Shown here: one piece after another, positions 40,517-64,000 of the stretch
Numbering within the stretch: the stretch's first letter is position 1
How the letters are laid out: each line of letters starts with the position of its first letter
NCBI GenBank assembly: GCA_016342325.1
Contig: JAEINR010000001.1
Coordinates: 62,001-126,000, forward strand
Reading direction: 5' to 3'
Source: Desulfobacterium sp.
Lineage (GTDB): Bacteria; Desulfobacterota; Desulfobacteria; Desulfobacterales; Desulfobacteraceae
DNA: 64,000 bases
Made by a program: the position numbers and the translations under genes
Notes under the pieces: generated by a model
What the model was told of the DNA's origin: nothing
The model's database searches: none
Seen by the model: the letters and a program-made list of their open reading frames with translations, nothing else

Positions 40517-40519
40517 GGA

Positions 40520-41476: not shown

Positions 41477-41866
41477 AAGAAACGATCCTTTCTTTCCATT
41501 AAAATTTAATTTCAACAATCCCATTTCCGATAATAGTCTTTGCAGAGACCAAGCAGTTGTGAGAGGATCCCCCTATGTTAGAAAAAGAACATCTACACAA
41601 AGGGCACATATTTTGCAAGTAGCTTCTGAATTGTCGGACTTAATATGAACGATCGGTAAAAACCGGCAATTCTAAAGACAAGGTACGGAATTTTTTTCCG
41701 GGAGATTTTAATAGTATGAACAGGTACTGGACCATATTCCATGGGCAAAAGCAAGAAAAAGAGCCCCGCATCATATAAAACAGCTGATATTTTCGGCCGA
41801 CATGATGCTAAAAAGAACAGAAGGTTCAAGTACCAGACAGACAGAACTGAAAAAAAAGGAAAACGC
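41477..41866. other. Divergent regulatory spacer between the two sugar clusters
   Basis: 390 nt with no supported gene; AT-rich open frames on both strands here have no ribosome site or recognisable content. It contains the sigma-54-like site described separately, a CGGT/ACCG mini-hairpin near 41652-41664 and a CGGAA/TTCCG hairpin near 41686-41700. No JUMPstart-type element was found. Confidence 0.5.
41602..41617 (+). promoter_or_regulatory. Sigma-54-type promoter candidate
   Basis: GGGCAC-ATATT-TTGCA matches the -24/-12 consensus TGGCAC-N5-TTGCA at all but the first base, with the required GG-N10-GC spacing. It faces the glycan-flagellin cluster, about 250 nt before its first start codon. 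An activator site was not identified. Confidence 0.5.
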
Positions 41867-47041: not shown

Positions 47042-48919
47042 ATGTGCGGAATCTGCGGTATATTTAATTTAAACGGCAACCCTGCTTCTCCGGTCATTTT
47101 GCGTAAAATGACGGATGCTATAGCCCACAGGGGCCCCGACGGTGAAGGCTTTTATACAGACCGTTTTATCGGGCTTGGACACAGACGGCTTGCAATTATT
47201 GACCTGTCCCCGGCAGGGCACCAGCCAATGATTTCTCCCGATGGGAATACTATTCTGACCTTTAATGGAGAGATATACAATTTCCAGGAATTGCGTTTAG
47301 AACTGGAAGCCCGTGGTCACCAATTTCATTCCCGAACGGACTCTGAGGTGGTGCTCAATTCCTGGATTGAATGGGGTCAGAAATGTATCACCCGCTTCAA
47401 CGGCATGTTCGCCTTTGCTGTGTGGGACAAACGTCAACAATCCCTATATTTAGTCCGTGACCGTTATGGAATAAAACCCCTTTATTATGCACATTATGGC
47501 AATGTTTTTTTGTTTGGGTCCGAACAGAAAGCCATCCTTGCTCATCCAGATGCAAAACATGATATAGACAAAAAGGCCCTTCTGGAATACTTCACTTTCC
47601 AGAATATTCTCACAGACCGCACTCTGCTCAAAAAAACCAAACTGCTCCCTCCTGCAAGCGTGGCAAAAATTGTGTTTGGGAAAAATGGAGACCCGCTGAT
47701 CACACGTTACTGGGATTACTGTTTTTGTGAACCTAAGCATCCTGCTGATCCCCGGGAATACCGCGAGGAACTCGATCGACTCATCCGTCAGGCTGTGAGC
47801 CGTCAACTGGTAACGGATGTAGAAATAGGTGCTTATCTATCCGGGGGCATGGACTCCGGGACCTTAACAGCTCTGGCCGCCAGAGAACTTCCATACATCA
47901 AAACATTTACCTGTGGTTTTGACCTCAGCTCCGCTTCAGGAATTGAAATGGGGTTTGATGAGAGGGTCAAAGCTGAAGCCATGTCTGCCCTTTTCAAAAC
48001 AGAACATTATGAAATGGTTCTCAAAGCGGGAGATATGGAGCGCTGTATTTCAAAACTTGCCTACCATATTGAGGAACCGAGGGTCGGACAAAGCTACCCG
48101 AACTATTATGTTGCCCAGCTGGCCAGTAAATTTGTGAAAGTTGTCCTTTCCGGGGCCGGAGGGGATGAGCTTTTTGGCGGTTATCCATGGCGTTATTATC
48201 GTGCCGTAAACTGTGCTAATTTTGAACATTATATTGATCAGTACTATCGTTACTGGCAACGTCTAGTTGGAAACCGTCATCTAAAAAAAATGTTTTCCCC
48301 TGTATGGAAGGATGTCAAGGATGTCTGGACCAGGGATATTTTTCGCAATGTTTTTGATACATATGACCATCAACTCTGCACACCCGAAGATTATATCAAT
48401 CATTCGCTCTATTTTGAAGCCAAGACTTTTTTGCATGGATTATTCGTAATTGAAGACAAGCTCAGCATGGCCCACAGTCTGGAAACCCGCGTACCATTTA
48501 TGGATAATGATCTTGTTGATTTCGCCATGAGCTGCCCTGTAAGCCTGAAACTAAATAATCTGGCTGAAGTTGTCCGGATCGATGAAAATGAACCTGGAAA
48601 TAAACAGACACAATTTTTCAAAAAAACCCGCGACGGCAAACAAATTTTACGGGATGTGATGGGTAAATATATTCCGGAGTATATTGTCAAAGCTGAGAAA
48701 CAGGGTTTTTCTTCCCCAGACGCCAGCTGGTTCAAGGGAGAAAGTATCAATTTTGTAAAACGCAAATTGATGAACGGTCATGCGCGGATATATGATTTCC
48801 TTGATCGGAAGATCGTACAGGACTTGGTAAATGAGCATCTTACCGGAACAAATAATCGACGTTTGCTTATATGGTCCCTGATTAATGTTGAAACTTTTTT
48901 AGGGCAAGAGATTAAATGA
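47042..48919 (+). CDS. asnB: AsnB-like glutamine-dependent amidotransferase
   Basis: Asparagine-synthetase-type enzyme; in sugar clusters such proteins often amidate a uronic acid or related carboxylate rather than aspartate. The 625-residue product has the N-terminal glutaminase with nucleophile Cys2 (MCGICGIFNLNG), AHRGPDGEG, GHRRLAIIDLSPAGHQPM and FNGEIYNF. The synthetase domain has the PP-loop YLSGGMDSGTLTAL (LSGGxDS), SGAGGDELFGGYPW and LETRVPFMD. Full length for the family. Four nt overlap the following formyltransferase gene (ATGA). The sugar carboxamide role is inference from context. Confidence 0.88.
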   Translation: MCGICGIFNLNGNPASPVILRKMTDAIAHRGPDGEGFYTDRFIGLGHRRLAIIDLSPAGHQPMISPDGNTILTFNGEIYNFQELRLELEARGHQFHSRTDSEVVLNSWIEWGQKCITRFNGMFAFAVWDKRQQSLYLVRDRYGIKPLYYAHYGNVFLFGSEQKAILAHPDAKHDIDKKALLEYFTFQNILTDRTLLKKTKLLPPASVAKIVFGKNGDPLITRYWDYCFCEPKHPADPREYREELDRLIRQAVSRQLVTDVEIGAYLSGGMDSGTLTALAARELPYIKTFTCGFDLSSASGIEMGFDERVKAEAMSALFKTEHYEMVLKAGDMERCISKLAYHIEEPRVGQSYPNYYVAQLASKFVKVVLSGAGGDELFGGYPWRYYRAVNCANFEHYIDQYYRYWQRLVGNRHLKKMFSPVWKDVKDVWTRDIFRNVFDTYDHQLCTPEDYINHSLYFEAKTFLHGLFVIEDKLSMAHSLETRVPFMDNDLVDFAMSCPVSLKLNNLAEVVRIDENEPGNKQTQFFKKTRDGKQILRDVMGKYIPEYIVKAEKQGFSSPDASWFKGESINFVKRKLMNGHARIYDFLDRKIVQDLVNEHLTGTNNRRLLIWSLINVETFLGQEIK

Positions 48920-49860
48920 GAGTTATATTTATAGGCGCAAGCAGGTTTGGGTTAGAATGCTTGAAAATACTGTCCGGGTTGGAAGGATGTGAATTGGTAG
49001 GAGTTGTCACAGCTCCACAAAAATTTTCAATATCTTATCGGCCAGAGGGAGTAGTCAACGTTCTTCATGCGGATGTAGAATCTTACTGTATGGCCAAACA
49101 TATTCCAACCTACAAAATAAATAACGGTATGAAAAGCGATGCCCTTTTCAATCAAGTCCGCACCTGGAATCCGGATATCTTTTTAGTTGCAGGCTGGTAT
49201 CATATGTTACCTAAAAAGTGGCTTGAGTTGACTCCTGCATATGGACTTCATGCCTCCTTGCTGCCGGATTACAGTGGCGGAGCGCCACTGGTTTGGGCGA
49301 TGATCAACGGCGAGAAACAAACTGGTATAACCCTGTTCAAATTTAATTCAGGCGTTGATAACGGCCCTATTCTTGGGCAAAAAAGAACCACCATATATGA
49401 AACCGATACTATCGCTACGCTCTATGTCCGCATAGAAAAGCTTGGATTGGAATTAATTCAAAAAAACATTCCCGCTCTTACCAATGGCACTGCAATTTTA
49501 ACCCCCCAGGACGATTCCCAACGAAGGATATTTCCCCAGCGCGGTCCCGAAGATGGAATTATTGATTGGAGTCGGACGGCCATGGAATTGCACAATTTTA
49601 TCAGAGCCCAAACCAGACCCTATCCCGGTGCTTTCACCACATGGAAGGGAAAACGTTTAACCATCTGGAAAGCCCAGGAATCAACCCATACAGAGACTCA
49701 GGAACTCAAACATGGTGAGGTTTCACACGAATCAAAAGCAATGTTGATAAATACAAGAAATAATTTCATCGAAGTACTGGAGGTGACTTATGGGCAGCAA
49801 GAAATCACAGGACAAGAACTTAAAAAAATTATTGGGATGGGGGCGGTCCTGGGAACATAG
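48916..49860 (+). CDS. Formyltransferase-fold protein, probable sugar N-formyltransferase
   Basis: Belongs to the methionyl-tRNA formyltransferase/ArnA-N fold that uses N10-formyl-tetrahydrofolate; in this context it would formylate an amino sugar. The 314-residue product starts MRVIFIGASRFGLECLKIL and has the fold's signature YGLHASLLPDYSGGAPLVWAMINGEKQTGITLFKFNSGVDNGPILGQ with His112 and an Asp near 147. The catalytic Asn normally two residues before the His is Gly110 here, which is unusual. The C-terminal OB-like region includes IDWSRTAMELHNFIRAQTRPYPGAFTTWKGK. Coupled to asnB. Confidence 0.75.
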   Translation: MRVIFIGASRFGLECLKILSGLEGCELVGVVTAPQKFSISYRPEGVVNVLHADVESYCMAKHIPTYKINNGMKSDALFNQVRTWNPDIFLVAGWYHMLPKKWLELTPAYGLHASLLPDYSGGAPLVWAMINGEKQTGITLFKFNSGVDNGPILGQKRTTIYETDTIATLYVRIEKLGLELIQKNIPALTNGTAILTPQDDSQRRIFPQRGPEDGIIDWSRTAMELHNFIRAQTRPYPGAFTTWKGKRLTIWKAQESTHTETQELKHGEVSHESKAMLINTRNNFIEVLEVTYGQQEITGQELKKIIGMGAVLGT

Positions 49861-49902
49861 CTCAACGGTTCAACCTTTTACAAAAAGTAAAGAAATACAG
49901 AA

Positions 49903-51072
49903 ATGATTCTAAACAGAGATATTAATAAATCCGGTATTCAAATTTGTACGCGTTGTATTTACGATGAGCGAGTATCCGGGATAAGGTTTGACAACGATGG
50001 TGTCTGTAATTATTGCAAACAAACAGAAACCTTAAAAGATCAATACGGAACCGGCTCACCTGTAGGAGATGGCAAGTTTTCCACAATTATTGAACAAATA
50101 AAAAAGGCAGGAAAAAGAAAAAAGTATGACTGCGCAATAGGGGTAAGCGGAGGGACGGATTCTTCATATCTGGTATATCTTGCAAAGCAATGGGGGCTTA
50201 GACCGTTAGCTGTTCATTATGACAATACCTGGAATTCAGCCATCGCCACAGAGAATATTCGTAAAGTTTTAAGCCAATTGGATGTTGATTTGTATACCCA
50301 TGTTGTTGACAACAAAGAATCCGACGACATATTTAAGTCCTTTTTTTTAGCAGATGTGGCAGAAATTGAAGCCGCTACGGATTTAGCGTTAGCCGAAACG
50401 ATGTATCGGGCGGCATCTAAATTTGGGATAAAATATGTGTTGGAAGGTCATTCTTTTATTACGGAAGGAATTACACCGGTTGGAAGAAATTATTTTGACG
50501 GCCGATATATCCAGACAATTCATGAAAAATTTGGCAGCCGTCCTATGAAATCATATCCATTGATGACGTTTAATAGATTTTTATGGTGGTCATCTGTAGC
50601 ACGAATAAGAAAGATTCGTCCCTATTGGTATATCGATTATAGCAAGGAAGAGGCTCAAGATTTTTTAAAAAGCAAATTTGGATGGAAGTATTACGGGGGG
50701 CACCATCTCGAAAACCGGATGACAGCCTTCACCCATGGAATTTATTTACCCAGGAAATTCAATTCGGATATGCGCAACAATACCCTTTCGGCTTTAGCTA
50801 GAATGGGTAAAATAAGTCGCGAGGAAGCATGGGCAAGGTACAATACCCCACCAGAGGTTGAAGAAAACTTGTTACGTTATTTTAAAAAACGTTTAGGCCT
50901 TTCGGAGTCTGAGTATGACGAGATTATGAGAAGAAGTCCAAAATCCTGGCATGAATATCCGACCTACAAGAAGCGCTTTGAGCGTTTCCGCCCATTGTTC
51001 GCTATTTTAGCCAAAGCCAACCTCGTCCCTATGAGTTTTTACTTAAAATACTGTTTTCCAGCAGAGGCATAA
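49903..51072 (+). CDS. wbpG: N-acetyl sugar amidotransferase (WbpG/PseA-like)
   Basis: Converts an acetamido group of a sugar nucleotide to acetamidino, using ammonia supplied by HisH/HisF-type partners. The 389-residue product has two CxxC pairs for zinc (Cys15/18 and Cys35/38: CTRCIYDERVSGIRFDNDGVCNYC) and a PP-loop CAIGVSGGTDSSYL (SGGTDSS 82-88). The family core follows with VLEGHSFITEGITPVGRNYFDGRYI. Its stop directly precedes hisH, and hisF follows, the same trio found in P. aeruginosa O-antigen and in flagellin-modification loci. Confidence 0.9.
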   Translation: MILNRDINKSGIQICTRCIYDERVSGIRFDNDGVCNYCKQTETLKDQYGTGSPVGDGKFSTIIEQIKKAGKRKKYDCAIGVSGGTDSSYLVYLAKQWGLRPLAVHYDNTWNSAIATENIRKVLSQLDVDLYTHVVDNKESDDIFKSFFLADVAEIEAATDLALAETMYRAASKFGIKYVLEGHSFITEGITPVGRNYFDGRYIQTIHEKFGSRPMKSYPLMTFNRFLWWSSVARIRKIRPYWYIDYSKEEAQDFLKSKFGWKYYGGHHLENRMTAFTHGIYLPRKFNSDMRNNTLSALARMGKISREEAWARYNTPPEVEENLLRYFKKRLGLSESEYDEIMRRSPKSWHEYPTYKKRFERFRPLFAILAKANLVPMSFYLKYCFPAEA

Positions 51073-51678
51073 ATGATCACCATTATTGATTATGGCATGG
51101 GTAATGTCGGGTCCATTAAAAATATGTTAGAACGGATTGGTGAACCTGCTATCATTACAAATGATATTGGCGAAATACGAGAAGCTGTCAAAATAATTCT
51201 TCCGGGAGTCGGCGCTTTTGATAATGCCATGACACAAATTAACGATAGCGGCTTACGCTCTATACTTGACCATAAAGCTTTGAACGAAAAGATACCAATC
51301 CTGGGAATATGCCTGGGAATGCAGTTGCTAACCCGTGGAAGTGAAGAGGGTAAAGAACTCGGGCTGAACTGGATTGCTGCTTCCTCTATCAAATTTCCTG
51401 ACAGCAATAGATTTAAAGTACCCCATATGGGATGGAATATTGTTCACAAATCAACTCGAAACGCCTTGACCAAAGGATTTGAAGGTGAAACCCGGTTCTA
51501 TTTTGTTCATTCTTATTATGTTCAGGTTGATGATGATAAAAATTCGATTTTAAAAACAGAATACGGCCTTCAATTTGATTCAGCCATAGCACAGGACAAT
51601 ATTTATGGTGTTCAGTTTCACCCCGAAAAAAGTCACCGTTTTGGAATGCGTGTGTTAACAAACTTTGCGGAGCTTTGA
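51073..51678 (+). CDS. hisH: HisH-type glutaminase subunit for sugar amidination
   Basis: Class I glutamine amidotransferase releasing ammonia. The 201-residue product starts MITIIDYGMGNVGSIKNMLERIG and has LPGVGAF, nucleophile Cys80 (LGICLGMQLL) and the His183/Glu185 pair (GVQFHPEKS). It matches HisH of histidine synthesis, but the flanking wbpG and the altered HisF, with no other his gene here, point to sugar amidination. The ATG follows immediately on the wbpG stop. Confidence 0.9.
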   Translation: MITIIDYGMGNVGSIKNMLERIGEPAIITNDIGEIREAVKIILPGVGAFDNAMTQINDSGLRSILDHKALNEKIPILGICLGMQLLTRGSEEGKELGLNWIAASSIKFPDSNRFKVPHMGWNIVHKSTRNALTKGFEGETRFYFVHSYYVQVDDDKNSILKTEYGLQFDSAIAQDNIYGVQFHPEKSHRFGMRVLTNFAEL

Positions 51679-51680
51679 AA

Positions 51681-52442
51681 ATGTTACGAACTCGAATAAT
51701 ACCCTGTCTGCTTTTAAGAAATGGTTCCCTTGTAAAAACCAAACGCTTTGGAAAGTTCAATTATATTGGTGATCCGGCAAATACATGCCGAATATTTAAC
51801 GAACTGGAAGTTGATGAATTGACAATTTTGGATATCAGTGCAAGCAAAGAGAAGCGAATTCCAAGCTATAATGTATTGCAAGAGATAACCAATGAATGCT
51901 TCATGCCGGTTTCATACGGAGGTGGAATCTCGTCTGTAAAAGCAGCTGAGCGGGTTTTCAAAATGGGCTTTGAAAAGGTTATTCTTAATAGTTCGGCACT
52001 TAAAAATCCGCACCTGATAAGAGAACTATCCAAAGCGTTTGGTAGTCAAAGTATAATTGTGGCTATTGATGTGAAAAAAAATTTTATAGGCAAACAACAA
52101 TGCAGGGGAGTGTCCGGCAAACTTAACAGCAAAAAACTTCCCATGGAATGGGCAAAACAAGTTCAAGACCTGGGGGCGGGAGAAATTTTACTAACCTCCA
52201 TTGATCGTGAAGGAACCTGGAGCGGTTTTGACCTTGAGTTGGTAAAATCGGTGTCTGATGCAGTCACAATTCCCGTAATTGCCAATGGGGGGGCTGGTTG
52301 CATTAACCATATTGGAGAGGCCGTTAAACTCGGTAATGCCTCGGCAGTTGCTTTAGGCAGTATGGTTGTTTATCAGAAAAAGGGCATGGGAGTTCTGGTT
52401 AACTTTCCAGATAAAAAACAGTTAAAAAAAGTATTGCAATAA
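51681..52442 (+). CDS. hisF: HisF-like subunit for sugar amidination
   Basis: TIM-barrel partner of HisH that channels ammonia. The 253-residue product from the ATG at 51681 (GGAG 8 nt upstream) starts MLRTRIIPCLLLRNGSLVKT. Genuine histidine-pathway HisF reads IIPCLDV here with the catalytic Asp11; that Asp is Leu in this protein. Later parts remain HisF-like: DELTILDISASKE, VSYGGGISSV, IIVAIDVKK, GAGEILLTSIDREGTWSGFD and IANGGAG. This loss of the cyclase residue is what I recall from P. aeruginosa HisF2, so it probably feeds ammonia to WbpG. Confidence 0.9.
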   Translation: MLRTRIIPCLLLRNGSLVKTKRFGKFNYIGDPANTCRIFNELEVDELTILDISASKEKRIPSYNVLQEITNECFMPVSYGGGISSVKAAERVFKMGFEKVILNSSALKNPHLIRELSKAFGSQSIIVAIDVKKNFIGKQQCRGVSGKLNSKKLPMEWAKQVQDLGAGEILLTSIDREGTWSGFDLELVKSVSDAVTIPVIANGGAGCINHIGEAVKLGNASAVALGSMVVYQKKGMGVLVNFPDKKQLKKVLQ

Positions 52443-53704: not shown

Positions 53705-55420
53705 ATGGGTAAGAACAAAAAAGAGGCAACCCCCTCAAAAGACACTTCAAAAGACCTGTTAAAACAGGGAAAAGCTTATTTCCAACAGGGCCGCTTGGAC
53801 CTTGCCGAGCAACACTTTCTTCAAGCTGTCCAAAGAGATCCGAACCTGGTAGAAGCCCACAATAACCTTGGTGTTGTTTCCTGGCAAAACAATGACTCCC
53901 AAAGGAGTATTGAGCATTTCAAACGGGCGCTATCAATAGATCCGCAAAACCAGGATGCCATAACAAATCTGGAACAAATCATAGAGATACTTAATTCACA
54001 AAATTCAAACACGGGCAAGGATAAGGCAAGAGGCCCGGCAAATACGGAACGAATTGAAATTGTAGACAACATTAAAGTGACAGTGCCTTTATCCGATTCA
54101 CTCATGACTCCATTTGTATTAAAAGAACAACGAGACTGGTTTGAAGACGAAATAACTTTTATACGGAACTTTGTTCAACCAGGTATGACCATAATTGACA
54201 TTGGTGCCAACTATGGGCTTTATACCTTATCCTGCGCAAAGAGATGCGAAAAGACAGGATCCGTATGGGCTTTTGAACCAACCAGCTCTGTTGCCGAATG
54301 CCTCAATGATAGCCTGTTGACAAACGGATTTTCAAACACAACCCTCGTCAATGCAGGTCTTTCAAACAAAAGTGGAGAAGCCAAATTATCCCTTAATCCC
54401 AACGCAGAATTAAATTCGCTCAATGCACCAATGCCTGACAATGGAGATTTTGAAATTATCAAGCTTAAAACCCTTGACGAATGTGCTCAGGATTATAACT
54501 GGAAAAAAATAGACTTTATCAAACTTGATGCTGAGGGAGAAGAAATTCGTATCATTGAAGGTGGAGCTCAAACCCTTGACAAATTTTCCCCACCTATCAT
54601 GTATGAACTGAAGCATGGAGATATAATAAACCTTTCCCTGATAAATGCGTTTAAAAGTTATGGCTATGCCCCATACTATCTTATCCCCGGACCACAACTG
54701 CTCATACCATTTGATCCCAGCACTGAATTTGATATTTTCTTGCTTAACCTATTTGCAATTAAAGATGAAACGGCCGAGCTACTTAAAAATAAAAACAAAC
54801 TAATAATAGACCTTGAAGCACTCAGCACTACACCCATTGATGGTTTACCTGAGGATTTATGGAAGTTTGCCCTAAAACAAAAAGCCTTTTCAGAACCGTT
54901 CATTAACAACTGGATTGAAATAATCACCTCCAGTGGAGAATCGTATATTACGGATTTAACCCATGCTCTAAATTTTTATTCCTATTATCTCATTGGAAAA
55001 GATCCTAATAAAAAACTAAAAGCTCTTTTAAAAAGTGAAGAACTCCTTAATCAAGTGTCAGAGAAAACACCAAACACCGGTGTTCTAATGACCCGGATCA
55101 GAGTGCTCATCGAGCTTGGACGCAGAGGAGATGCTGTTCTTCTTCTTGATTCACTTATCAAAAAAGTCATATCAGGAGAAGCTCTATCCTATGATCTTCC
55201 ATTTTTCCCAGTTTCTGAAAGGTATGATAATCTGCCCACAGGGAGTTCCCCGGACAACTGGTTAATCTCCTCAGTTGTAGAACTGTATGAAAAGAAAAAA
55301 GCCTTTTCATCATACTTCGCAGGCAAACAGTCCATTGCAAATCTTGAACACCTTCTGACCCTTGGATATTGTGATGATGAAATAAAACGTCGCCTGGAAC
55401 TTCTTAAATCCATGCCATAA
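53705..55420 (+). CDS. TPR protein with FkbM-family methyltransferase domain
   Basis: Predicted O-methyltransferase with a TPR targeting module. The 571-residue product has a Lys-rich start, two to three TPR units at about 16-95 (LLKQGKAYFQQGRLDLAEQHFLQAVQRDPNLVEAHNNLGVVSW), and an FkbM domain at about 135-350. The latter shows motif I FVQPGMTIIDIGANYGLYTLSCAKRC, LDECAQDYNWKKIDFIKLDAEGEEIRIIEGG and YELKHGD. A C-terminal helical part (360-571) is not recognised. The TPR block is closely similar to an internal block of the next gene. GGAG lies upstream of the ATG. Confidence 0.82.
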   Translation: MGKNKKEATPSKDTSKDLLKQGKAYFQQGRLDLAEQHFLQAVQRDPNLVEAHNNLGVVSWQNNDSQRSIEHFKRALSIDPQNQDAITNLEQIIEILNSQNSNTGKDKARGPANTERIEIVDNIKVTVPLSDSLMTPFVLKEQRDWFEDEITFIRNFVQPGMTIIDIGANYGLYTLSCAKRCEKTGSVWAFEPTSSVAECLNDSLLTNGFSNTTLVNAGLSNKSGEAKLSLNPNAELNSLNAPMPDNGDFEIIKLKTLDECAQDYNWKKIDFIKLDAEGEEIRIIEGGAQTLDKFSPPIMYELKHGDIINLSLINAFKSYGYAPYYLIPGPQLLIPFDPSTEFDIFLLNLFAIKDETAELLKNKNKLIIDLEALSTTPIDGLPEDLWKFALKQKAFSEPFINNWIEIITSSGESYITDLTHALNFYSYYLIGKDPNKKLKALLKSEELLNQVSEKTPNTGVLMTRIRVLIELGRRGDAVLLLDSLIKKVISGEALSYDLPFFPVSERYDNLPTGSSPDNWLISSVVELYEKKKAFSSYFAGKQSIANLEHLLTLGYCDDEIKRRLELLKSMP

Positions 55421-55530: not shown

Positions 55531-58500
55531 ATGGACAAGACTCAAAAAGATAGTTCCCCATCAGCAAATGTCGACAGCTTTAACAGAGCGTCGCAATTCT
55601 ATAGCAACCGTGATTTCAGCAATGCCATCAAAGAATGTGAATCCATTCTTGCAAACGATACAAACAATATAAATGTCTTAAATCTGCTTGGCCAGATAAA
55701 TTTCCAAACCCAAAATCACCAGAAAGCCCTTGATTATTACGGAAAGGTCCTATCCATCGATCCGGCCTACGCCGTAACCCTCAATAATGCAGGAAGAGTA
55801 TTTGAAGCCCTTGGAAACTATTTAAAAGCTCTTGAGTTTTACCAAAAAGCTGCAGAATTACACCCTGAGATCCCTGAAATATTGGTCAATATTGGAAACA
55901 CAAATGCCGCATTAAACAATGATCAACAAGCTATTTCATATTACAAGCAGGCATTAAAAATAAGGCCCAATTATGCCGAAGTCCATTCAAACCTCGGGAA
56001 CCTCTATTTTCAAAAACAAGGAGACATCGGCAACGCGATCAAGCATTGTAAAAAAGCCATTAAAATCAATCCAAAACTGGCTGAGGCCCACAACAATCTT
56101 GGCAATGCACTCAAGCACCAAGGGCACCTTGACCAAGCGATTCAATACTACAAAAAGGCAATAAAGCTGAAACCGGATTATTCATGTGCAAACTCAAATC
56201 TTCTTTTAGGAATCCATTACAGCGATAGCATCTCTCCCAAAGAGGTTTTTAACGAACATAAAAATTATGCACAAAACCAGTGTGCCAGCGTCTCACCTGA
56301 CGCCCATACAGATCATGATAGATCGGTAAACAGAATTTTACGAATAGGATATATTTCCCCTGATTTCAGGGCCCACCCCGTTGCATGGTTTATAGAGTCT
56401 GTAATTGCAGAACATGACCGGTCTCATTTTAAAGTCTTCTGCTATTCAGACGTGATAACGCCTGACCTCTTGACAGAAAAATTCAATAAAATTTCAGACT
56501 GTTTCCAGACCATCAAAGGCTTCTCCCATACCGATGTTGCATCCCTCATAAAAAATGATCAAATAGATATACTTGTGGATCTTGCAGGGCATACGGCCAA
56601 CAACCGAATACCAATGCTTGCACTGAAACCTGCTCCGATCCAGATCACCTACCTTGGGTATCCTGGCACCACAGGGCTGGACAGCGTGGATTACAGACTG
56701 ACGGACCACTTCGCAGATCCAAAAGGCATGACGGAACAATATCATACTGAAAAACTCATCCGAATGCCCAGATCCTTTCTTTGCTACACCTCGCCTGAAT
56801 TTTCCCCAGGGAGCACAGAACCCCTATCCAAACGATCTGGCAAAATAACATTTGGATCATTTAACAACAGATCCAAAATTACGAAGACAGTGATTGCTAC
56901 CTGGGCTGAAATTTTGAAAAAAGTTCCCGGTTCAACCCTGTTTCTAAAGGCAAAATCCCTTGCAGACCCTGAGACCCAAAGACTAATGATAAAGCTGTTC
57001 AAAAAACACAAAATCAGCCATAAACAACTTTATTTTTCAGGTTTTCTTCCCGATGCTGCGGATCATATGCTTTTGTACAACAAGGTGGACATAGCCCTTG
57101 ACACCTTCCCCTATAATGGTACCACAACCACCTGTGAGGCATTGTGGATGGGGGTTCCGGTCGTCACCGTTCAAGGTAAAACCCATGCTTCCCGTGTGGG
57201 AACAAGTATTCTCTCAAATACCGGATTAGAAGAACTGATTGCCAAAGACAGAAACGACTATATAAAAAAAGCCTGCGCCCTTGCCAATGCCCCTCATCAG
57301 CTTGCGCAGCTAAAATCCGAGTTAAGAAACCGAGTAAAGGAATCCGGATTCATTGATGCAAGAAGATTCACCCGGGAGCTTGAACAAAACCTCTCCACTG
57401 CCTGGCAGAAATGGTGCAACTCCATACAGAAAGTTGGCGACACTAATTATACGCTTGACCATAACGGCCCGGACGAACTTTTAAAACAGGGAGAGGCTTA
57501 TTTCCAGAATGGTGAGATGGAACTTGCGGAACAACACTTCCAAAAAGCCGTCCTCAAAGATCCGAATCTTGTTGATGCATATAACAATCTTGGCGTCATT
57601 TGCTGGCAGAAGAGAAACCTGGAAGAAAGCATTGCACACTTTAAAAAGGCATTGACCCTGGACCCGGTAAATCAGGATGCAATTGCCAACCTGAAACAGA
57701 TCTCACACACGCTTGAAAATGAACTCCAGGTAAAAAACGGCCAAGAATCGCCCCCACATATCTCCTCTGTACAGCCAGAACAAAAGGCAGCCAGCGTGTC
57801 TAAATTACTTGTGAGCTTCGTTAATTCGGTGCCTTCCCTGGAAAAAAGTCAAGGGGGGCTCTACCTTGTGGATCTCAAAACCAATGAGCATAAAAAAGTA
57901 ATTGACTTGAACGATCTGCACATGGACCTAAAAAAAGGAACTCCAGCCAGGGGAATTTCAGGTATCGCCTCTCACGATGATCAGATATGTCTCGTGGCAG
58001 GGGATACCCTCTTCATCTACGATAAACATTTTCAACGGATTGAAACCCACCAAAGCCTATACCTGAAAGACAATCATGGGATATTTGCTTCAGGCAACAG
58101 GCTTTTTATCACATCGACCGGGTTTGATGCAATACTTGTGTTTGACTTTTTATCCAGGAAATTTGTTGAAGGTTACCATGTAAAATACAACGAGACCGTC
58201 AACAGTATCCACCTGCTGGCATTTGACCCTGAATCTGAAAAAGGTCCGGTTCAAAAAAATACAATTCATCTTAACACCGTGTCCATACATGACAACAAAC
58301 TCTATTTTTCCTGCCGAAACCTTGACCGGCTTTTTTGTGTACACGAAAATGGTGCCATGGATGCAGTGGCCAATATTCCTTTGGGAACCCAGACTGCAAG
58401 GCCCTACAAGAAAGGCTTTTTAATACCCGCAACAAACGGACATACCCTGGAGCACCTTGATTTTAACGGCAAGGTCATTCAATCCTTTAATGTGCACCAT

Positions 58501-58704
58501 CACGGAAAAACGGATTCTATCACAACGCCTGCTTTCAATTATTCCATGGGACTCTGTATCATAGACGATGATTTAATCATAACAGGAGCGTCTTCTTCAA
58601 CCATCATAGCGTACAGATCAGGAGTCAACGAGCCGGTCATAACAGTTAATCTGCCCATGGCAAGAACAAGTTCCATTAACGCACTTGTAGCATGGACATT
58701 CTAA
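55531..58704 (+). CDS. TPR-GT41 (SPINDLY/OGT-like) glycosyltransferase fused to a second TPR block and a C-terminal propeller-like domain
   Basis: Predicted protein O-glycosyltransferase. The 1057-residue product has five to six TPRs at 10-235 (NNAGRVFEALGNYLKALEFYQKAAELHPEIPEILVNIG). A GT41 catalytic region follows at about 269-627: ILRIGYISPDFRAHPVAWFIE, ILVDLAGHTANNR, ITYLGYPGTTGLDSVDYRLTD, FGSFNNRSKITKTVIATWAEIL and LDTFPYNGTTTTCEALWMGVPVVT. A second TPR block lies at about 648-735, nearly the same as in the preceding gene. The C-terminal 300 residues (757-1057) are beta-rich with repeats such as GIASHDDQICLVAGDTLFIYDK and TVSIHDNKLYFSCRNLDRLFCV, like the DUF4915-type propeller. This last fusion is unusual. 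Flagellin is a likely acceptor by position. Confidence 0.82.
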   Translation: MDKTQKDSSPSANVDSFNRASQFYSNRDFSNAIKECESILANDTNNINVLNLLGQINFQTQNHQKALDYYGKVLSIDPAYAVTLNNAGRVFEALGNYLKALEFYQKAAELHPEIPEILVNIGNTNAALNNDQQAISYYKQALKIRPNYAEVHSNLGNLYFQKQGDIGNAIKHCKKAIKINPKLAEAHNNLGNALKHQGHLDQAIQYYKKAIKLKPDYSCANSNLLLGIHYSDSISPKEVFNEHKNYAQNQCASVSPDAHTDHDRSVNRILRIGYISPDFRAHPVAWFIESVIAEHDRSHFKVFCYSDVITPDLLTEKFNKISDCFQTIKGFSHTDVASLIKNDQIDILVDLAGHTANNRIPMLALKPAPIQITYLGYPGTTGLDSVDYRLTDHFADPKGMTEQYHTEKLIRMPRSFLCYTSPEFSPGSTEPLSKRSGKITFGSFNNRSKITKTVIATWAEILKKVPGSTLFLKAKSLADPETQRLMIKLFKKHKISHKQLYFSGFLPDAADHMLLYNKVDIALDTFPYNGTTTTCEALWMGVPVVTVQGKTHASRVGTSILSNTGLEELIAKDRNDYIKKACALANAPHQLAQLKSELRNRVKESGFIDARRFTRELEQNLSTAWQKWCNSIQKVGDTNYTLDHNGPDELLKQGEAYFQNGEMELAEQHFQKAVLKDPNLVDAYNNLGVICWQKRNLEESIAHFKKALTLDPVNQDAIANLKQISHTLENELQVKNGQESPPHISSVQPEQKAASVSKLLVSFVNSVPSLEKSQGGLYLVDLKTNEHKKVIDLNDLHMDLKKGTPARGISGIASHDDQICLVAGDTLFIYDKHFQRIETHQSLYLKDNHGIFASGNRLFITSTGFDAILVFDFLSRKFVEGYHVKYNETVNSIHLLAFDPESEKGPVQKNTIHLNTVSIHDNKLYFSCRNLDRLFCVHENGAMDAVANIPLGTQTARPYKKGFLIPATNGHTLEHLDFNGKVIQSFNVHHHGKTDSITTPAFNYSMGLCIIDDDLIITGASSSTIIAYRSGVNEPVITVNLPMARTSSINALVAWTF

Positions 58705-58722: not shown

Positions 58723-61329
58723 ATGACATCAATTTCAAAAATCAATAAGCTTTTTACGAAAGCCCAAAGTTACTGTGTTTCCGGGGATTATCAGAACGCC
58801 CGGATCCTTTGTGAAAAAATAATAAACATCAACCCCAAAAATCCCGACGCCTTAAATATGATGGGATGGATTGCCCATGTAACGGGGAATAATGAAGAAG
58901 CTGAAAAATTAATAAACAAGGCGATCCGGTTGAACTCGCTTGTACCTGTTTTCCACAACAACCTTGGCAACATTCTTTTTGCCCAGGGAAAAAACAGACC
59001 CGCATTTAACGCATTCTTAAAAACCGTCAAGTTGAAACCGGATTATGCTGAAGCACACTATAACTTAGGCCTTACCGCAATGGCCTGCAATAAGCATGAC
59101 CGGGCTGTCAATAGCTTTAAGCAAGCCATTAAACTTAAAGCGGATTTTGGCGAAGCCTATTTGGGATTGGGCAACGTTCAAATGGCACAAAACCTTTTGC
59201 AGGAGGCCATTGTCTCCTATACGAAGGCCATTGAAATAACCCCGGCATATCTGGAGGCCTGCGTCAACTTAAGTATCACCCTTAGATCTGTAGGTGACAA
59301 TGATCGAGCTAAAAAAGTGCTGCAAAAAGCACTCATTCATTTGCCGGATAATTCTGAAATTTTATTAAATCTTGGTAGTCTATATAAAGATGACGCTGAA
59401 CCAGACAAAGCTGTTGCGTGTTTCCAATCAGCTCTTAAAACAACCCCCGATGATGCCCGAATTCTCTATAATCTTGGAACGACCTTGATGGATTCCAAGC
59501 AGTATTCTAAAGCATTTAAGCACCTTAATAGAGTACTGGAGTTTTCACCCAAAGACCCAAAAACACTAAACAACCTGGGCCTTATTTTTTCCAATTCCGG
59601 TGCATTTGCACGGGCTATTGACTATTACAACATGGCCCTTGAAAACCGTCCTGATTATTTCAAAGCGTACAACAACCTAGGAATTGCCTACAAAAGACTT
59701 GAACAAAAAGACAAAGCAACGGCTTTTTTCCGGAAAGCCATTGCTCTCTCCCCTGAATTTACCCAAGCCTACCACAACCTTGCCGAAATCCTTTGGGAGG
59801 CTGGAGACCTTGAAGGAGCCGCAGAAAACTGCAGAAAAGCCATCGCGCTTAAACCAGACCTAACCCAGGCCCATGCCCACTATGCCTCTGTTCTAAAATA
59901 TCAATGCAACTGGGATGAATTTGAAAAGGTATCGCGTCGCATTGATGACCTCCTTCAAAACGAACTGGATCAAGGCAAACCAATTGGAGAACCCCCTTTT
60001 CTGAACCTTATCAGAACCAACGATCCTGGATATAACCGAATAGTTGCAGATGCCTTTGCCAAAAGAACATCACACTCTGCCAAAGCCCTGGATGTAAGTT
60101 TTACATTTGATCCCCCTCCACGGGAAAAACAAAAAATAACCGTTGGCTACATCTCTGCAAATTTTCGCAACCACCCCATGGCCCACCTTCTGGCAAGCCT
60201 GTTCAAACTTCACAACAGAAACGACTTTAATATCAACTGCTACTCCCTGGGGCCTGACGATAAAAGCATCTACAGGCAAAGATTCATGGAGGACTCAGAC
60301 ATATTCAGAGATTTACGAGCCCTAAACCACGTAGATGCAGCACGACAGATATATGACGACAAGGTGGACATTCTTGTGGATCTCATGGGGTACACCCAAG
60401 GCAACAGAATGGAAATTATGGCCCTGCATCCGGCACCGGTTCAAGTAAGATACATGGGGCTTGCGGGCACAACCGGCGGGGACTTTTTTGATTATATCAT
60501 AACCGATAAAATCGTCACGCCCAAAGATCAGTCCGTCAATTATGCTGAAAAATTCATCTACATGCCCCACACATATCAAATAAATGACAAGAACAAAATA
60601 ATTTCCGACAAACCCATATCAAGACAAATGGTTGGCCTTCCTGAAAATAATTTTGTGTTCTGCTCATTCAACCAATCCTATAAAATTGATCCTGTAATCT
60701 TTTCATCATGGCTGGAGATATTAGAACGAACAAAAAACAGCGTCCTCTGGCTAATGCCCAAAAACAGGACAGCAAAACAAAATTTATTGGCTGCGGCCAG
60801 GAAGCACGGTATCGATGAAAAAAGACTTGTTTTTGCCCAACACCTCCCTCTGGATGAACATATAGCAAGGCTCAAACTTGCTGATCTTGCCCTGGATACA
60901 CGAACAATTGGCGGCGCGGCAACAACAAGCGATGCCCTCTGGGGTGGCCTGCCAGTGATAACCCTCCTGGGGAAGAATTTTGCGTCACGCATGTCTGCAA
61001 GCATCCTTTCCGCAATAGGGCTTGAAGAGCTTGTTACCCATACCATTCAAGAATATACAGAACTTGCCATAGATCTTGCAAATGACAAAACCAAGCGTGT
61101 CACATTACGCAACAAGTTAAAAAGCAACATTGGTTCCATGCCCCTATTCGATACATCCGCCTTCACAGTTAACCTTGAACAAGGATTTAAAAAGATATGG
61201 GATATATATATGGCGGGAGAATCCCCCCGGATAATTGACGTAAAAAATGAATGCACAGAAATCACCATTGGCACGTCACTGGACACAGAGACCTATGGCT
61301 TTCATGTTAAAAACATTTTAATGGGTTAA
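58723..61329 (+). CDS. TPR-GT41 (SPINDLY/OGT-like) glycosyltransferase
   Basis: Second predicted protein O-glycosyltransferase of the cluster. The 868-residue product has about eleven TPRs over residues 1-400 (AEAHYNLGLTAMACNKHDRAVNSFKQAIKLKADFGEAYLGLGNV and similar). The GT41 region spans about 471-835: KITVGYISANFRNHPMAHLLASLFKLHN, ILVDLMGYTQGNRMEIMALHPAPVQVRYMGLAGTTGGDFFDYIITD, FCSFNQSYKIDPVIFSSWLEIL, LDTRTIGGAATTSDALWGGLPVIT and FASRMSASILSAIG. It starts 18 nt after the previous gene and ends 5 nt before the FkbM gene, so the three form one transcript. Donor sugar unknown. Confidence 0.85.
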   Translation: MTSISKINKLFTKAQSYCVSGDYQNARILCEKIININPKNPDALNMMGWIAHVTGNNEEAEKLINKAIRLNSLVPVFHNNLGNILFAQGKNRPAFNAFLKTVKLKPDYAEAHYNLGLTAMACNKHDRAVNSFKQAIKLKADFGEAYLGLGNVQMAQNLLQEAIVSYTKAIEITPAYLEACVNLSITLRSVGDNDRAKKVLQKALIHLPDNSEILLNLGSLYKDDAEPDKAVACFQSALKTTPDDARILYNLGTTLMDSKQYSKAFKHLNRVLEFSPKDPKTLNNLGLIFSNSGAFARAIDYYNMALENRPDYFKAYNNLGIAYKRLEQKDKATAFFRKAIALSPEFTQAYHNLAEILWEAGDLEGAAENCRKAIALKPDLTQAHAHYASVLKYQCNWDEFEKVSRRIDDLLQNELDQGKPIGEPPFLNLIRTNDPGYNRIVADAFAKRTSHSAKALDVSFTFDPPPREKQKITVGYISANFRNHPMAHLLASLFKLHNRNDFNINCYSLGPDDKSIYRQRFMEDSDIFRDLRALNHVDAARQIYDDKVDILVDLMGYTQGNRMEIMALHPAPVQVRYMGLAGTTGGDFFDYIITDKIVTPKDQSVNYAEKFIYMPHTYQINDKNKIISDKPISRQMVGLPENNFVFCSFNQSYKIDPVIFSSWLEILERTKNSVLWLMPKNRTAKQNLLAAARKHGIDEKRLVFAQHLPLDEHIARLKLADLALDTRTIGGAATTSDALWGGLPVITLLGKNFASRMSASILSAIGLEELVTHTIQEYTELAIDLANDKTKRVTLRNKLKSNIGSMPLFDTSAFTVNLEQGFKKIWDIYMAGESPRIIDVKNECTEITIGTSLDTETYGFHVKNILMG

Positions 61330-61334
61330 ACAAA

Positions 61335-62195
61335 ATGAACCAAAATGAATTAAACGACACCTTATATAACGCCGTACGGGAAGTATCCCCCTCCCTCTCC
61401 TTTACAATTCTTGAAATTGGTGCCCTGCCAATAGAGGGAGAGATCGAACCGTTTCATCGATTAATCGACTTTTTTCCAGAATCGACTTTGATTGCATTTG
61501 AAGTCGACAAAGAACTCTGCAAGGAACTAAACGCAAAATCCAAACCCAATATAAATTATTATCCAGTTGCAGTGGCTCAACACGATGAAGAACGCATTTT
61601 CTACGACACAGTGAATCCAATGTGCGGCTCTTTATACAGACCCAATGAAAAGTTCCTGGGACTTTATCAAAATCTCGACGTAGCAATGATAAAGTCAATA
61701 AGTACTGTCAATACAGTCAGCCTGGATAGCTTCACCCGGGCGAACCATATAAATGATGTTGATTTTATAAAAATTGATATCCAGGGAGCGGAGTTAGATG
61801 TTTTTAAGGGGGGGGGTAACACCTTAGGGAATGTACTCAGTATTGTAAGTGAAGTTGAGTTTGTACCCTTGTATGTTGATCAACCCCTGTTTGGAGATGT
61901 GTGCAGCCATCTGAACGGGCAAGAGATGATGTTCCATAAATTTCTTGGAATGGCGGGTCGCACACTCAAACCTGTTTTTTTAAACAATAATCCTAATTTT
62001 TGTTCCCAGCAAATGTGGGCGGATGCCATGTTCGTAAAAAAGATACACAAATTAAAAGACCTTACTTCAGAAAAATTATTAAAGCTGGGGATTCTATCCT
62101 ATCTTTATAACAGTCCAGATCTTGCCCATTTCTGTTTTAAACTCCATGATGACAAAAATGGAACAAATCTATCCCCCAAAGCACTGAATCAATAA
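61335..62195 (+). CDS. FkbM-family methyltransferase
   Basis: Predicted SAM-dependent O-methyltransferase. The 286-residue product has FTILEIGALPIEGEIEPFHRLIDFFPESTLIAFEVDKELC (motif I region, less canonical than usual), VNTVSLDSFTRANHINDVDFIKIDIQGAELDVFKGGGNTLGNV, the FkbM core, and SEVEFVPLYVDQPLFGDV. It starts 5 nt after the second GT41 gene and is the last gene before flagellin. Together with the TPR-FkbM protein and the class I enzyme it makes three methyltransferases for the same cluster. Confidence 0.83.
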   Translation: MNQNELNDTLYNAVREVSPSLSFTILEIGALPIEGEIEPFHRLIDFFPESTLIAFEVDKELCKELNAKSKPNINYYPVAVAQHDEERIFYDTVNPMCGSLYRPNEKFLGLYQNLDVAMIKSISTVNTVSLDSFTRANHINDVDFIKIDIQGAELDVFKGGGNTLGNVLSIVSEVEFVPLYVDQPLFGDVCSHLNGQEMMFHKFLGMAGRTLKPVFLNNNPNFCSQQMWADAMFVKKIHKLKDLTSEKLLKLGILSYLYNSPDLAHFCFKLHDDKNGTNLSPKALNQ

Positions 62196-62419: not shown

Positions 62420-64000
62420 ATGGCACTTAGAATTAACACAAACGTTGCAGCACTCTCGGCCCACTTGAGCATGAAAAAAACTGACAGCGCAATGAGCCAG
62501 TCCCTGGGACGACTCTCAACTGGTCTCAGGATCAATAAGGCTGCAGATGATGCTTCAGGCATGGCAATTGCCGACTCCTTACGGTCCCAGGCAAACGGTC
62601 TTGGCCAGGCCGTAAAAAATGCCAACGACGGTATATCCATCGTCCAGACAGCAGACGGCGCCCTTGAAGAAGCAACAAACATAGTCAACACCATCAAGAC
62701 CAAGGCCATCCAGGCAGCCCAGGACGGCCAGACATTTGCATCCAGAAAAATCATCCAGAAGGATATTTCCAAACTGCTGGAAGAGGTTGACCTTCTTGCA
62801 TCTACCACATCCTTCAATGGTAAAAAGCTCCTTTCCGGCGAATTTACAAACAAGAGTTTCCAGGTGGGCTCATCCTCCCGTGAAACTGTTGGTATCAACA
62901 TCAAGTCCGCTGAGACCTCAAAAATCGGGCATGTAACAACTGCAGATTTGAAAGTTACCGATACCGGTGACCTTTCCCTCCTGATTCACAGCAACGAACA
63001 GGATAAGGATTTTACACTTGAAACAATAAACATGCAGTATAACAACGAAGCGGCAAACGGCATCGGAGCCCTTGCCAATGCTGTAAACAGGTCATCGGAT
63101 AAGACAGGCATAAGCGCCCAGGCCATTGTTCAATCAAGTTCCAACGGAACGATTAAAGCCGGAACAATCTCAGAGGGAGACGGCTTCTCCATCAACGGAA
63201 TTGCCATGGGTGCCATTGATGTCGAGGCAAATGACAATAGCGGCACGCTTGTGGCAGCAATCAACCAAAAATCCGACCAGACTGGCGTTTCTGCCGCCAT
63301 AAACGATGGCGTACTTACCCTGACTTCAGCTGACAACAGGGCCATCAAAGTTGACGGTAAGTTGGGTGCCGTCATGGGTAAAGATTCATCAGCCATGTCA
63401 ACCTTTGGTGAACTGAAGATCACACAGACAGGTTCAAATACCCTGGCAATAAAAGATGCTGCCAGCGGAACATTGACAGAAACACAACTCGTAACCACTT
63501 CAACCCTTAATACTACCTCTGATATGGTTATGGCAAAAGACTCCCTGTTGGATGCAGCCGCAAGTACACTTGCCAAGGGAACCAAGTTGGGATTTAACCT
63601 CGCGACCACGGCCGCTACGAAAACAACGGTCGACTCCACCATTACAGCGGGTTCAATCTTGGCTACGACCGCAACCATTGATGAAGGCACCACCCTTGGA
63701 GGAAATTTCTCAGCGCTCGCTTTTACCACAACCGACACAGCCGTCCTAGGAAAAGGCACGGTCATAGCGAATCTTTCAACCCTTGGTAAAGGAACCGTAC
63801 TCTCAACCGACATTACAACAGCGGCCGGTGTGATCTCAGCAGGTTCCACCCTCACCGCAGACACGGCCCTTACAGCGGCGGTTACCCTCCAGGGTGAGAT
63901 GACGGTACAGAAAGATACGGACTTTGCCGCCAGTACGGTTTTTGCTGCCGGCTCCACAATAAACGACGATTTTATAACCAACGCCGTTGTAACAGTAACC
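62420..64000 (+). CDS. fliC: Flagellin, large (N-terminal 527 residues; continues past window)
   Basis: Filament subunit exported through the flagellar type III apparatus. The frame is open to the window end. Residues 1-175 are a canonical flagellin D0/D1: MALRINTNVAALSAHLSMKK, LGRLSTGLRINKAADDASGMAIADSLRSQ, NANDGISIVQTADGALEEATNIV and TSFNGKKLLSG. A long variable middle follows, with flagellin-IN-like motifs (GTLVAAINQKSDQTGVSA). From about residue 380 a Thr/Ser/Ala-rich stretch repeats GT(x)L/I-type turns (KGTKLGFNL, AGSILATT, EGTTLGGNF, KGTVLSTD, AGSTLTAD). GGAGG precedes the ATG. The size and Ser/Thr content fit a glycosylated flagellin; glycosylation itself is inferred from the neighbouring genes. 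Confidence 0.94.
   Translation, partial: MALRINTNVAALSAHLSMKKTDSAMSQSLGRLSTGLRINKAADDASGMAIADSLRSQANGLGQAVKNANDGISIVQTADGALEEATNIVNTIKTKAIQAAQDGQTFASRKIIQKDISKLLEEVDLLASTTSFNGKKLLSGEFTNKSFQVGSSSRETVGINIKSAETSKIGHVTTADLKVTDTGDLSLLIHSNEQDKDFTLETINMQYNNEAANGIGALANAVNRSSDKTGISAQAIVQSSSNGTIKAGTISEGDGFSINGIAMGAIDVEANDNSGTLVAAINQKSDQTGVSAAINDGVLTLTSADNRAIKVDGKLGAVMGKDSSAMSTFGELKITQTGSNTLAIKDAASGTLTETQLVTTSTLNTTSDMVMAKDSLLDAAASTLAKGTKLGFNLATTAATKTTVDSTITAGSILATTATIDEGTTLGGNFSALAFTTTDTAVLGKGTVIANLSTLGKGTVLSTDITTAAGVISAGSTLTADTALTAAVTLQGEMTVQKDTDFAASTVFAAGSTINDDFITNAVVTVT

What the first reader, a model, noticed from the sequence alone, without database searches (positions are those of the whole stretch)
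55531..58704. OGT-like enzyme with an internal second TPR block and a propeller-like C-terminal domain
Order seen: TPR, GT41, TPR, beta-repeat domain of about 300 residues. Bacterial OGT homologues normally end with the catalytic domain. A propeller fused behind it could bind the acceptor filament protein or a glycan and would make a self-contained glycosylation machine.
Basis: partly seen in the sequence, partly recalled or inferred. Interest (0 to 1): 0.6.

Follow-up and report, generated by a model that had tools for sequence, protein, structure and literature searches.

The report
SPINDLY-type glycosyltransferase with C-terminal propeller
Beside a flagellin gene in an unnamed bacterium lies an enzyme that probably puts a sugar on the flagellar protein, and its far end carries an extra ring-shaped domain distantly related to sulfate-transferring enzymes but without their key residue, so it most likely binds something instead of reacting with it.

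Summary
The architecture is real. ORF 55531-58704 (1057 aa) reads TPR, GT41, TPR, then a tail of about 300 residues that AlphaFold models as a six-bladed propeller (pLDDT 79, pTM 0.80). The GT41 domain is SPINDLY-type (310 bits against 166 to human OGT); the next gene holds an OGT-type GT41, and flagellin is the third gene downstream. The tail matches no Pfam, NCBIfam or PHROG family. Eight relatives were found, all single genes: three viral records, four genomes in the phylum of a Magnetovibrio-labelled MAG, and Desulfamplus. Two of the three viral records place it among GT10 and GDP-mannose dehydratase genes. Profile comparison links the family, with a sister family, to arylsulfotransferases (Prob 92) and DUF4915 (Prob 88). 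That alignment pairs its HxN and THN histidines with conserved arylsulfotransferase histidines. The fused copy keeps HxN but has Gln for the second, so I predict a binding module, not a second enzyme. Against this: the stand-alone copies lack an Arg that arylsulfotransferases carry, and structure ranks receptor propellers higher. The internal TPR is shared (48 of 75 aa) with the upstream TPR-FkbM gene.

The parts
55531..58704 (+). Whole ORF, 1057 aa, TPR - GT41 - TPR - propeller
55582..56220 (+). N-terminal TPR array (residues about 18-230; limits approximate)
   Evidence: Pfam TPR families; TPR_1 has 7 stretches in the whole protein
56299..57426 (+). GT41 catalytic domain (residues about 257-632), SPINDLY-type; His282, Asn445, Lys449, His512, Tyr528 and Thr532 lie at the AtSPY H495, N661, K665, H728, Y744 and T748 positions; Pro283 at S496 (positions counted by hand from the alignment, letters checked)
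57475..57705 (+). Internal TPR module (residues 649-725); 48 of 75 aa identical to the TPR module of ORF 53705-55420, identity falls off at both ends
57799..58701 (+). Six-bladed propeller (residues 757-1057). Motif residues kept: His849, His913, Asn915. Changed from the stand-alone copies in alignment A9: Gln954 (His), Met1006 (Arg), Asn1050 (His)
53705..55420 (+). Neighbour: TPR + FkbM methyltransferase, carries the related TPR module
58723..61329 (+). Neighbour: second GT41 gene, OGT-type (300 bits to human OGT against 179 to SPY)
61335..62195 (+). Neighbour: FkbM methyltransferase
62420..64000 (+). Flagellin gene, runs past the window end; 790 aa in all, Ser+Thr 0.29-0.30 in residues 300-600; candidate acceptor

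Best explanation
The protein is a cytosolic SPINDLY-type GT41 O-glycosyltransferase of a flagellar glycosylation island. Its N-terminal TPR superhelix holds the acceptor (most likely the flagellin encoded three genes downstream) while the GT41 domain transfers a sugar to Ser/Thr (inferred). The C-terminal TPR plus propeller is a separate module added by domain shuffling: its TPR is related to that of the neighbouring TPR-FkbM gene, and its propeller comes from a family otherwise found here only as single genes (shown by sequence). That family is distantly related to DUF4915 and to arylsulfotransferase propellers (profile evidence). The fused copy lacks the histidine that aligns with the one sulfated in arylsulfotransferases, so it most likely no longer catalyses. 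It would act as a binding or docking module for a glycan or sulfated ligand, or for a partner enzyme of the island, close to the acceptor (inferred).
For: GT41 type: 310 bits to SPY against 166 to human OGT, and the reverse for the next gene. The catalytic Lys, the His and the SPY Tyr744 position are conserved. Flagellin is the third gene downstream. Propeller model. All 8 relatives found are single ORFs of 305-371 aa, so fusion is probably derived. Internal TPR shared with the FkbM gene, 48/75 aa. Profile links (E-values for one comparison): family to sister family Prob 99.1; family plus sister to arylsulfotransferases Prob 91.8, E 7.4e-7, and to DUF4915 Prob 88.4, E 2.8e-6. Family alone to arylsulfotransferases Prob 52.2, score 40.0; 0 of 200 column shuffles reached it, best 24.4. 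The fused copy keeps 39 of 75 columns invariant in four stand-alone copies: 8 of 24 charged/amide/His columns against 31 of 51 others (Fisher p 0.046).
Against: Only one genome carries the fusion, so no conservation shows that it is used. The Fisher test is marginal, its classes were chosen after looking, and two of the four stand-alone copies are 97% identical. The profile links rest on alignments of 4-12 sequences, and no shuffled control was run for the combined profile or for DUF4915. Solved arylsulfotransferases rank below receptor propellers that are not enzymes (Z 21.1-21.7 against 22.8-23.8). The column aligned with the arylsulfotransferase Arg (EcAST R374 by spacing) is Leu, His or Thr in the stand-alone copies, and EcAST H252 is not aligned. 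The donor is unknown: Tyr at the Y744 position also occurs in XcOGT and TtOGT, whose donors are unsettled (PMC9715652 section 12). Ser496 of SPY is Pro here. In-frame starts at 57517 (ATG) and 57796 (GTG) leave separate translation of the tail possible.
Confidence: 0.5

Rival explanations
1. The propeller is an acceptor-recognition domain for the filament protein, giving the enzyme a second grip on flagellin.
For: Propellers are common protein-binding folds (general knowledge; receptor and Kelch propellers are frequent); flagellin is the third gene downstream.
Against: Stand-alone relatives include viral genes in glycan clusters, and I noticed no flagellin by eye in the ORFs listed around them (not searched for). 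In FlmG the TPR domain does this job (PMC7591256 passages). The family's motifs lie at or near the starts of the innermost strands, which suits a small ligand in the channel.
Confidence: 0.2
2. The propeller is a decaying remnant with no present function, fused by chance loss of a stop codon.
For: Single genome; the Desulfamplus relative keeps only 14 of 75 invariant columns (gaps counted as lost) and ends early; several motif residues are lost in the fused copy.
Against: The frame is open over 300 residues with GC3 like the GT41 part (0.445 and 0.449); the fold is predicted with fair confidence, and His849, His913 and Asn915 remain.
Confidence: 0.2
3. The fusion is bifunctional: the propeller is still an enzyme (sulfotransferase-like or another transferase) that modifies the sugar the GT41 domain adds.
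For: Profile link to arylsulfotransferases with matched HxN. The fused copy, unlike the stand-alone ones, has Arg (residue 929) in the column of the arylsulfotransferase Arg. The genome has overlapping genes for GDP-mannose dehydratase, an Fcl-like epimerase and ATP sulfurylase/APS kinase.
Against: The residue aligned with the sulfated His is Gln; the H436N form of EcAST is deposited as a mutant with substrate in the active site (title).
Confidence: 0.1

Closest known systems
SPINDLY (plant protein O-fucosyltransferase, GT41)
   Same: N-terminal TPRs and GT41 domain, 310 bits over the catalytic domain; H495, N661, K665, H728, Y744 and T748 positions conserved.
   Different: Bacterial, near flagellin; Pro at S496; carries an extra TPR plus propeller after the catalytic domain.
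FlmG (Caulobacter flagellin glycosyltransferase)
   Same: TPR domain followed by a GT-B domain, works on flagellin in the cytoplasm (PMC7591256, passages).
   Different: FlmG is 596 residues, TPR plus GT only as described in the passages seen, and adds pseudaminic acid; no sequence comparison with FlmG was made here.
Arylsulfate sulfotransferase (PF05935; EcAST, Cpz4)
   Same: Six-bladed propeller; HxN and a following His aligned in profile comparison; Cpz4 and EcAST are among the 50 structural matches listed, with longer alignments (261-282 residues) than the top rows but lower Z.
   Different: No Pfam match; Gln in place of the sulfated His in the fused copy; Arg of the active site absent in the stand-alone copies; no beta-sandwich domain; EcAST H252 not aligned.
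DUF4915 (PF16261) propellers
   Same: Same motif order (HD, HLN, PHS, RGL); Prob 88 with the combined profile.
   Different: No Pfam match; direct family-to-family comparison Prob 1.2.
Sister propellers L100-L105, which match no Pfam family above its cut-off in the two tested
   Same: Prob 99 to the tail family; L101 hits DUF4915 below the cut-off (23.1 bits against 35).
   Different: Weak matches to the tail profile (E 7e-8 to 8e-6); open frames of 325-367 aa, not fused to GT41.

Membership tests
GT41 (PF13844) | Match above the curated cut-off | tested here: met
   208.8 bits against 25
GT41 (PF13844) | Catalytic lysine (AtSPY K665) present | tested here: met
   Lys449; role from PMC9715652 passages
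SPINDLY-type GT41 | Closer to SPY than to OGT | tested here: met
   310 bits against 166 to human OGT and 257 to the Thermobaculum enzyme; no tree was built
SPINDLY-type GT41 | Tyr at the Y744 position | tested here: met
   Tyr528; also found in XcOGT and TtOGT
SPINDLY-type GT41 | GDP-fucose as donor | not testable with these tools
   The genome has Gmd above the family cut-off and an overlapping epimerase that looks like Fcl, so the donor is probably available
DUF4915 (PF16261) | Match above the curated cut-off | tested here: not met
   No match at E up to 10
Arylsulfotransferase (PF05935) | Match above the curated cut-off | tested here: not met
   No match at E up to 10
Arylsulfotransferase (PF05935) | Active-site His-x-Asn (EcAST H356, N358) | tested here: met
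   His913, Asn915; hhalign pairs this column with the HFN of P0002; EcAST numbers assigned by spacing only
Arylsulfotransferase (PF05935) | Sulfate-carrying histidine (EcAST H436) | tested here: not met
   Gln954 in the fused copy; His in L054, L055, L038, L003, L099, L107 and L108; Cys in Desulfamplus
Flagellin glycosyltransferase of the FlmG kind | TPR domain followed by GT-B domain | tested here: met
   TPR then GT41; that GT41 is GT-B is general knowledge
Flagellin glycosyltransferase of the FlmG kind | Binds and modifies flagellin | not testable with these tools
   Gene neighbourhood only

The most novel reading that the evidence does not exclude
The stand-alone propellers are an unrecognised branch of the arylsulfotransferase superfamily, used by viruses and bacteria to sulfate fucose-bearing glycans or glycoproteins, and the window protein is a protein fucosyltransferase fused to a sulfotransferase-derived domain that reads or positions the sulfated product.
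Probability: 0.12. Interest if true: 0.75.

Novelty: new variant of a known kind. Interest (0 to 1): 0.47.

Why it matters
It offers a testable bacterial SPINDLY-type enzyme with a candidate acceptor near by, and it points to a small propeller family, found in viral and bacterial sugar clusters, for which I found no Pfam, NCBIfam or PHROG model. The profile links suggest that DUF4915, this family and the arylsulfotransferases share an ancestor and a set of motif positions, which suggests assays for proteins that now have no function.

Tried and rejected
Sequence searches of the tail alone gave little: no match in Pfam, NCBIfam, PHROGs, PDB or plasmids. The pattern scans found no relative, with a better alignment, found two viral loci, and two genome loci, one of them Desulfamplus again. 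Four matches at E 0.006-0.008 (15-17 bits) I treated as chance. In one search seven of nine matches are weak (E 7e-8 to 5e-5): L100-L105 I treat as a sister family; L106 looks different and was not used. The profile search of the PDB (21 sequences) hit designed propellers and WD40 proteins, in most rows over 30-45 residues (two rows over 128 and 89); I take this as the repeat only. Foldseek's own top rows were a surface-layer protein and BtuG lipoproteins at TM about 0.5, and in BFVD an unnamed Caudovirales phage protein, A0A6J5L568, TM 0.68/0.75, 17% identity, not followed up.

Alignment A5 used a wrong frame for L063 and was replaced by A6. The first family-to-DUF4915 comparisons were negative (Prob 0.9 and 1.2). 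In one search one of six sister sequences (L103) was a wrong 107-aa frame; one search repeats it without: sister to arylsulfotransferases Prob 84.3 (83.7 before), sister to DUF4915 72.3 (92.4 before). Arylsulfotransferase to DUF4915 directly: Prob 0.5.

Rejected: that the tail is disordered; that fold matches name the function, since the best rows are receptor propellers. The motif pattern was made after looking and fitted only 3 of 6 stand-alone copies and not P0002, so its shuffle is not used. One search failed on an index error and was rerun. Paper searches listed no GT41-propeller protein by title or start of abstract; DUF4915 and TIGR03032 gave 0 papers each. Only open-licence PMC text was searched. 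Of papers I saw listings, plus passages and section 12 of PMC9715652, passages of PMC7591256 and passages of PMC13426309.

On checking this report I lowered the novel case from 0.15 to 0.12: the arylsulfotransferase Arg is missing in the stand-alone copies, and arylsulfotransferases rank below, not level with, receptor propellers.
Full report
What was checked. The window is G000:C149:62001-126000 of an unnamed 6.67-Mb genome. Another genome of the same family, G003, appears to be Desulfamplus magnetovallimortis: the contig with its propeller gene has the same length (76,373) as record NZ_LT828564.1. ORF 55531-58704 is continuous, 1057 aa. Pfam gives TPRs, Glyco_transf_41 and a second TPR pair; the tail has no family.

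The tail is a propeller. AlphaFold with three sequences gave pLDDT 79.3, pTM 0.80 and 24 strands. VIA-align's best row is LRP6 3s94, Z 22.8, rmsd 2.8, 240 aligned; Foldseek's best rows have TM about 0.5. A stand-alone relative from a viral contig (L107) gave a better model, pLDDT 85.2, pTM 0.86, again 24 strands, best Z 23.8.

The catalytic domain. Against the PDB, residues 244-640 score 310 bits to Arabidopsis SPINDLY, 257 to the Thermobaculum enzyme (5djs) and 166 to human OGT. The next gene's GT41 domain is the reverse: 300 to human OGT, 179 to SPINDLY. So two GT41 types sit side by side. The SPY positions H495, N661, K665, H728, Y744 and T748 are kept; S496 is Pro (counted by hand, letters checked). 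PMC9715652 (passages and section 12) ties K665 and Y744 to activity and donor choice, but also says that XcOGT and TtOGT have Tyr there with unsettled donors. The genome has a GDP-mannose dehydratase above the family cut-off, an epimerase that looks like Fcl overlapping it, and a fused ATP sulfurylase/APS kinase overlapping that. It can probably make GDP-fucose and PAPS, but that cluster is on another contig (C63).

Where the tail came from. The internal TPR module is 48 of 75 aa identical to the TPR module of the upstream TPR-FkbM gene. Identity falls off at the module ends, and only 21 of the 48 identical residues use the same codon, so the copy is probably old. Relatives of the propeller: 2 of 98 nearest genomes, its own included; only itself among 395 of the phylum by single sequence, with four more at chance level by profile; 3 of 385 in the class of a Magnetovibrio-labelled MAG, the MAG included; 9 of 299 in that MAG's phylum, 2 of them strong, the MAG included; 1 of 50,697 phage records; none of 72,556 plasmids; 2 viral-contig loci. 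These samples overlap in part. The eight distinct relatives (LR756508.1, L107, L108, L038, L054, L055, L099, Desulfamplus) are all single ORFs of 305-371 aa; none is fused.

Context of the stand-alone genes. In phage record LR756508.1 the gene overlaps a GT10 (fucosyltransferase family) gene by 4 bases, with an epimerase and a GDP-mannose dehydratase gene about 4 kb on. In L107 it is followed by a Sulfotransfer_1 gene, with GT10, GT11 and GDP-mannose dehydratase genes near; the gene before it has no Pfam match at E 0.01. In L108 the second gene before it is an epimerase; the first has no Pfam match. In L054 it lies between a TPR-sulfotransferase and an Asp/Asn hydroxylase-like gene; L055 shows the same TPR-sulfotransferase by eye. 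In L038 the gene before it is a family-2 glycosyltransferase, and the next has no Pfam match. In Desulfamplus it lies after an acyltransferase gene and, with one gene between, before an OGT-type GT41 gene like the window's second one. In L099 the neighbours do not look like glycan genes (by eye). The link to fucose and sulfate genes is therefore partial.

What the propeller is. In the L107 model the family motifs (RGLRGI, HE, HLN, THN, RGL, IHGLE) stand at or near the starts of innermost strands, that is, probably around one mouth of the channel. Family profile against sister proteins L100-L105 without L103: Prob 99.1. Against six arylsulfotransferases (P0002, a PF05935 match of 71.7 bits, and five plasmid records annotated as such): Prob 52.2, E 1.4e-4, score 40.0; 50.6 without the window copy; 0.2 against the reversed alignment; 0 of 200 column-shuffled profiles reached 40, best 24.4. 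Family plus sister, 12 sequences: Prob 91.8 to arylsulfotransferases, 88.4 to DUF4915 (no shuffles run for these). The alignment pairs HLN with HFN and THN with QHD of P0002. P0002 is tied to EcAST numbering only by spacing (Asn at +2 and Arg at +18 from the His). EcAST's active site is given as H252, H356, N358, R374 and T501 with H436 sulfated (PMC13426309 passages).

Against the arylsulfotransferase reading. Direct comparison with DUF4915 is weak (Prob 1.2). EcAST H252 is not aligned. The column of the arylsulfotransferase Arg is Leu, His or Thr in the stand-alone copies. Cpz4 and EcAST rank below the receptor propellers (Z 21.2 and 21.1 against 22.8; 21.7 and 21.5 against 23.8), though with longer alignments. 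A shared fold shows no function.

The fused copy. Of 75 columns invariant in four stand-alone copies it keeps 39; of 24 charged, amide or His columns 8, of 51 others 31 (p 0.046; classes chosen afterwards; two of the four copies are 97% identical). It keeps His849, His913 and Asn915 and has Arg929, but Gln954 stands where seven of the eight relatives have His; Desulfamplus has Cys. Hence the prediction: binding, not catalysis. The Desulfamplus copy keeps 14 of 75, gaps counted as lost.

Commonness. Among 42 distinct GT41 ORFs from the loci in hand, 32 had a readable end and 30 of these end within 100 aa; none of 11 tails of 60+ aa matched the propeller. Large frames with several GT41 domains occur in the order, so domain addition to GT41 is not itself rare.

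Verdict. Observation confirmed; interpretation partly supported; a new variant of a known kind.

Noticed in passing
G064:C438, G069:C218 (L056), G090:C74: Open frames of 4843, 3835 and 8093 aa in related genomes; the first two hold many GT41 domains with TPRs, the third shows at least two GT41 stretches.
   Followed up: partly
window 55531-58704 and 58723-61329: Two adjacent GT41 genes of different types, SPINDLY-type and OGT-type.
   Followed up: yes
L016, ORF of 1104 aa: Another GT41 protein with a 328-aa tail that looks by eye like a GT4-type glycosyltransferase (not tested by a family search).
   Followed up: partly
L097 2968-6788 (G000:C63): Overlapping genes for GDP-mannose dehydratase, an epimerase that looks like Fcl, and ATP sulfurylase/APS kinase, suggesting joint supply of GDP-fucose and PAPS.
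   Followed up: partly
L107 and L003: Viral records with GT10, GDP-mannose dehydratase and further sugar genes around the propeller; L107 also has GT11 and a sulfotransferase.
   Followed up: partly
window 38841-41524: Aminotransferase, hexapeptide acyltransferase and Gfo/Idh genes on the minus strand (Pfam), like a diacetamido-uronic acid set (pathway recalled).
   Followed up: no
window 48916-52442: Formyltransferase, then a gene without Pfam match that looks like an amidotransferase and HisH/HisF-like genes (by eye), as in acetamidino-sugar synthesis (recalled).
   Followed up: no
L100-L105: Propeller family in open frames of 325-367 aa, one beside an epimerase-like gene and one beside an ABC-transporter-like gene (by eye); profile-linked to DUF4915, the tail family and arylsulfotransferases.
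   Followed up: partly
L115 2951-5056: A FliD-like gene (by eye) follows the flagellin gene downstream of the window.
   Followed up: no
BFVD A0A6J5L568: Closest viral fold match to the tail, an unnamed 287-aa phage protein, TM 0.68/0.75, 17% identity.
   Followed up: no
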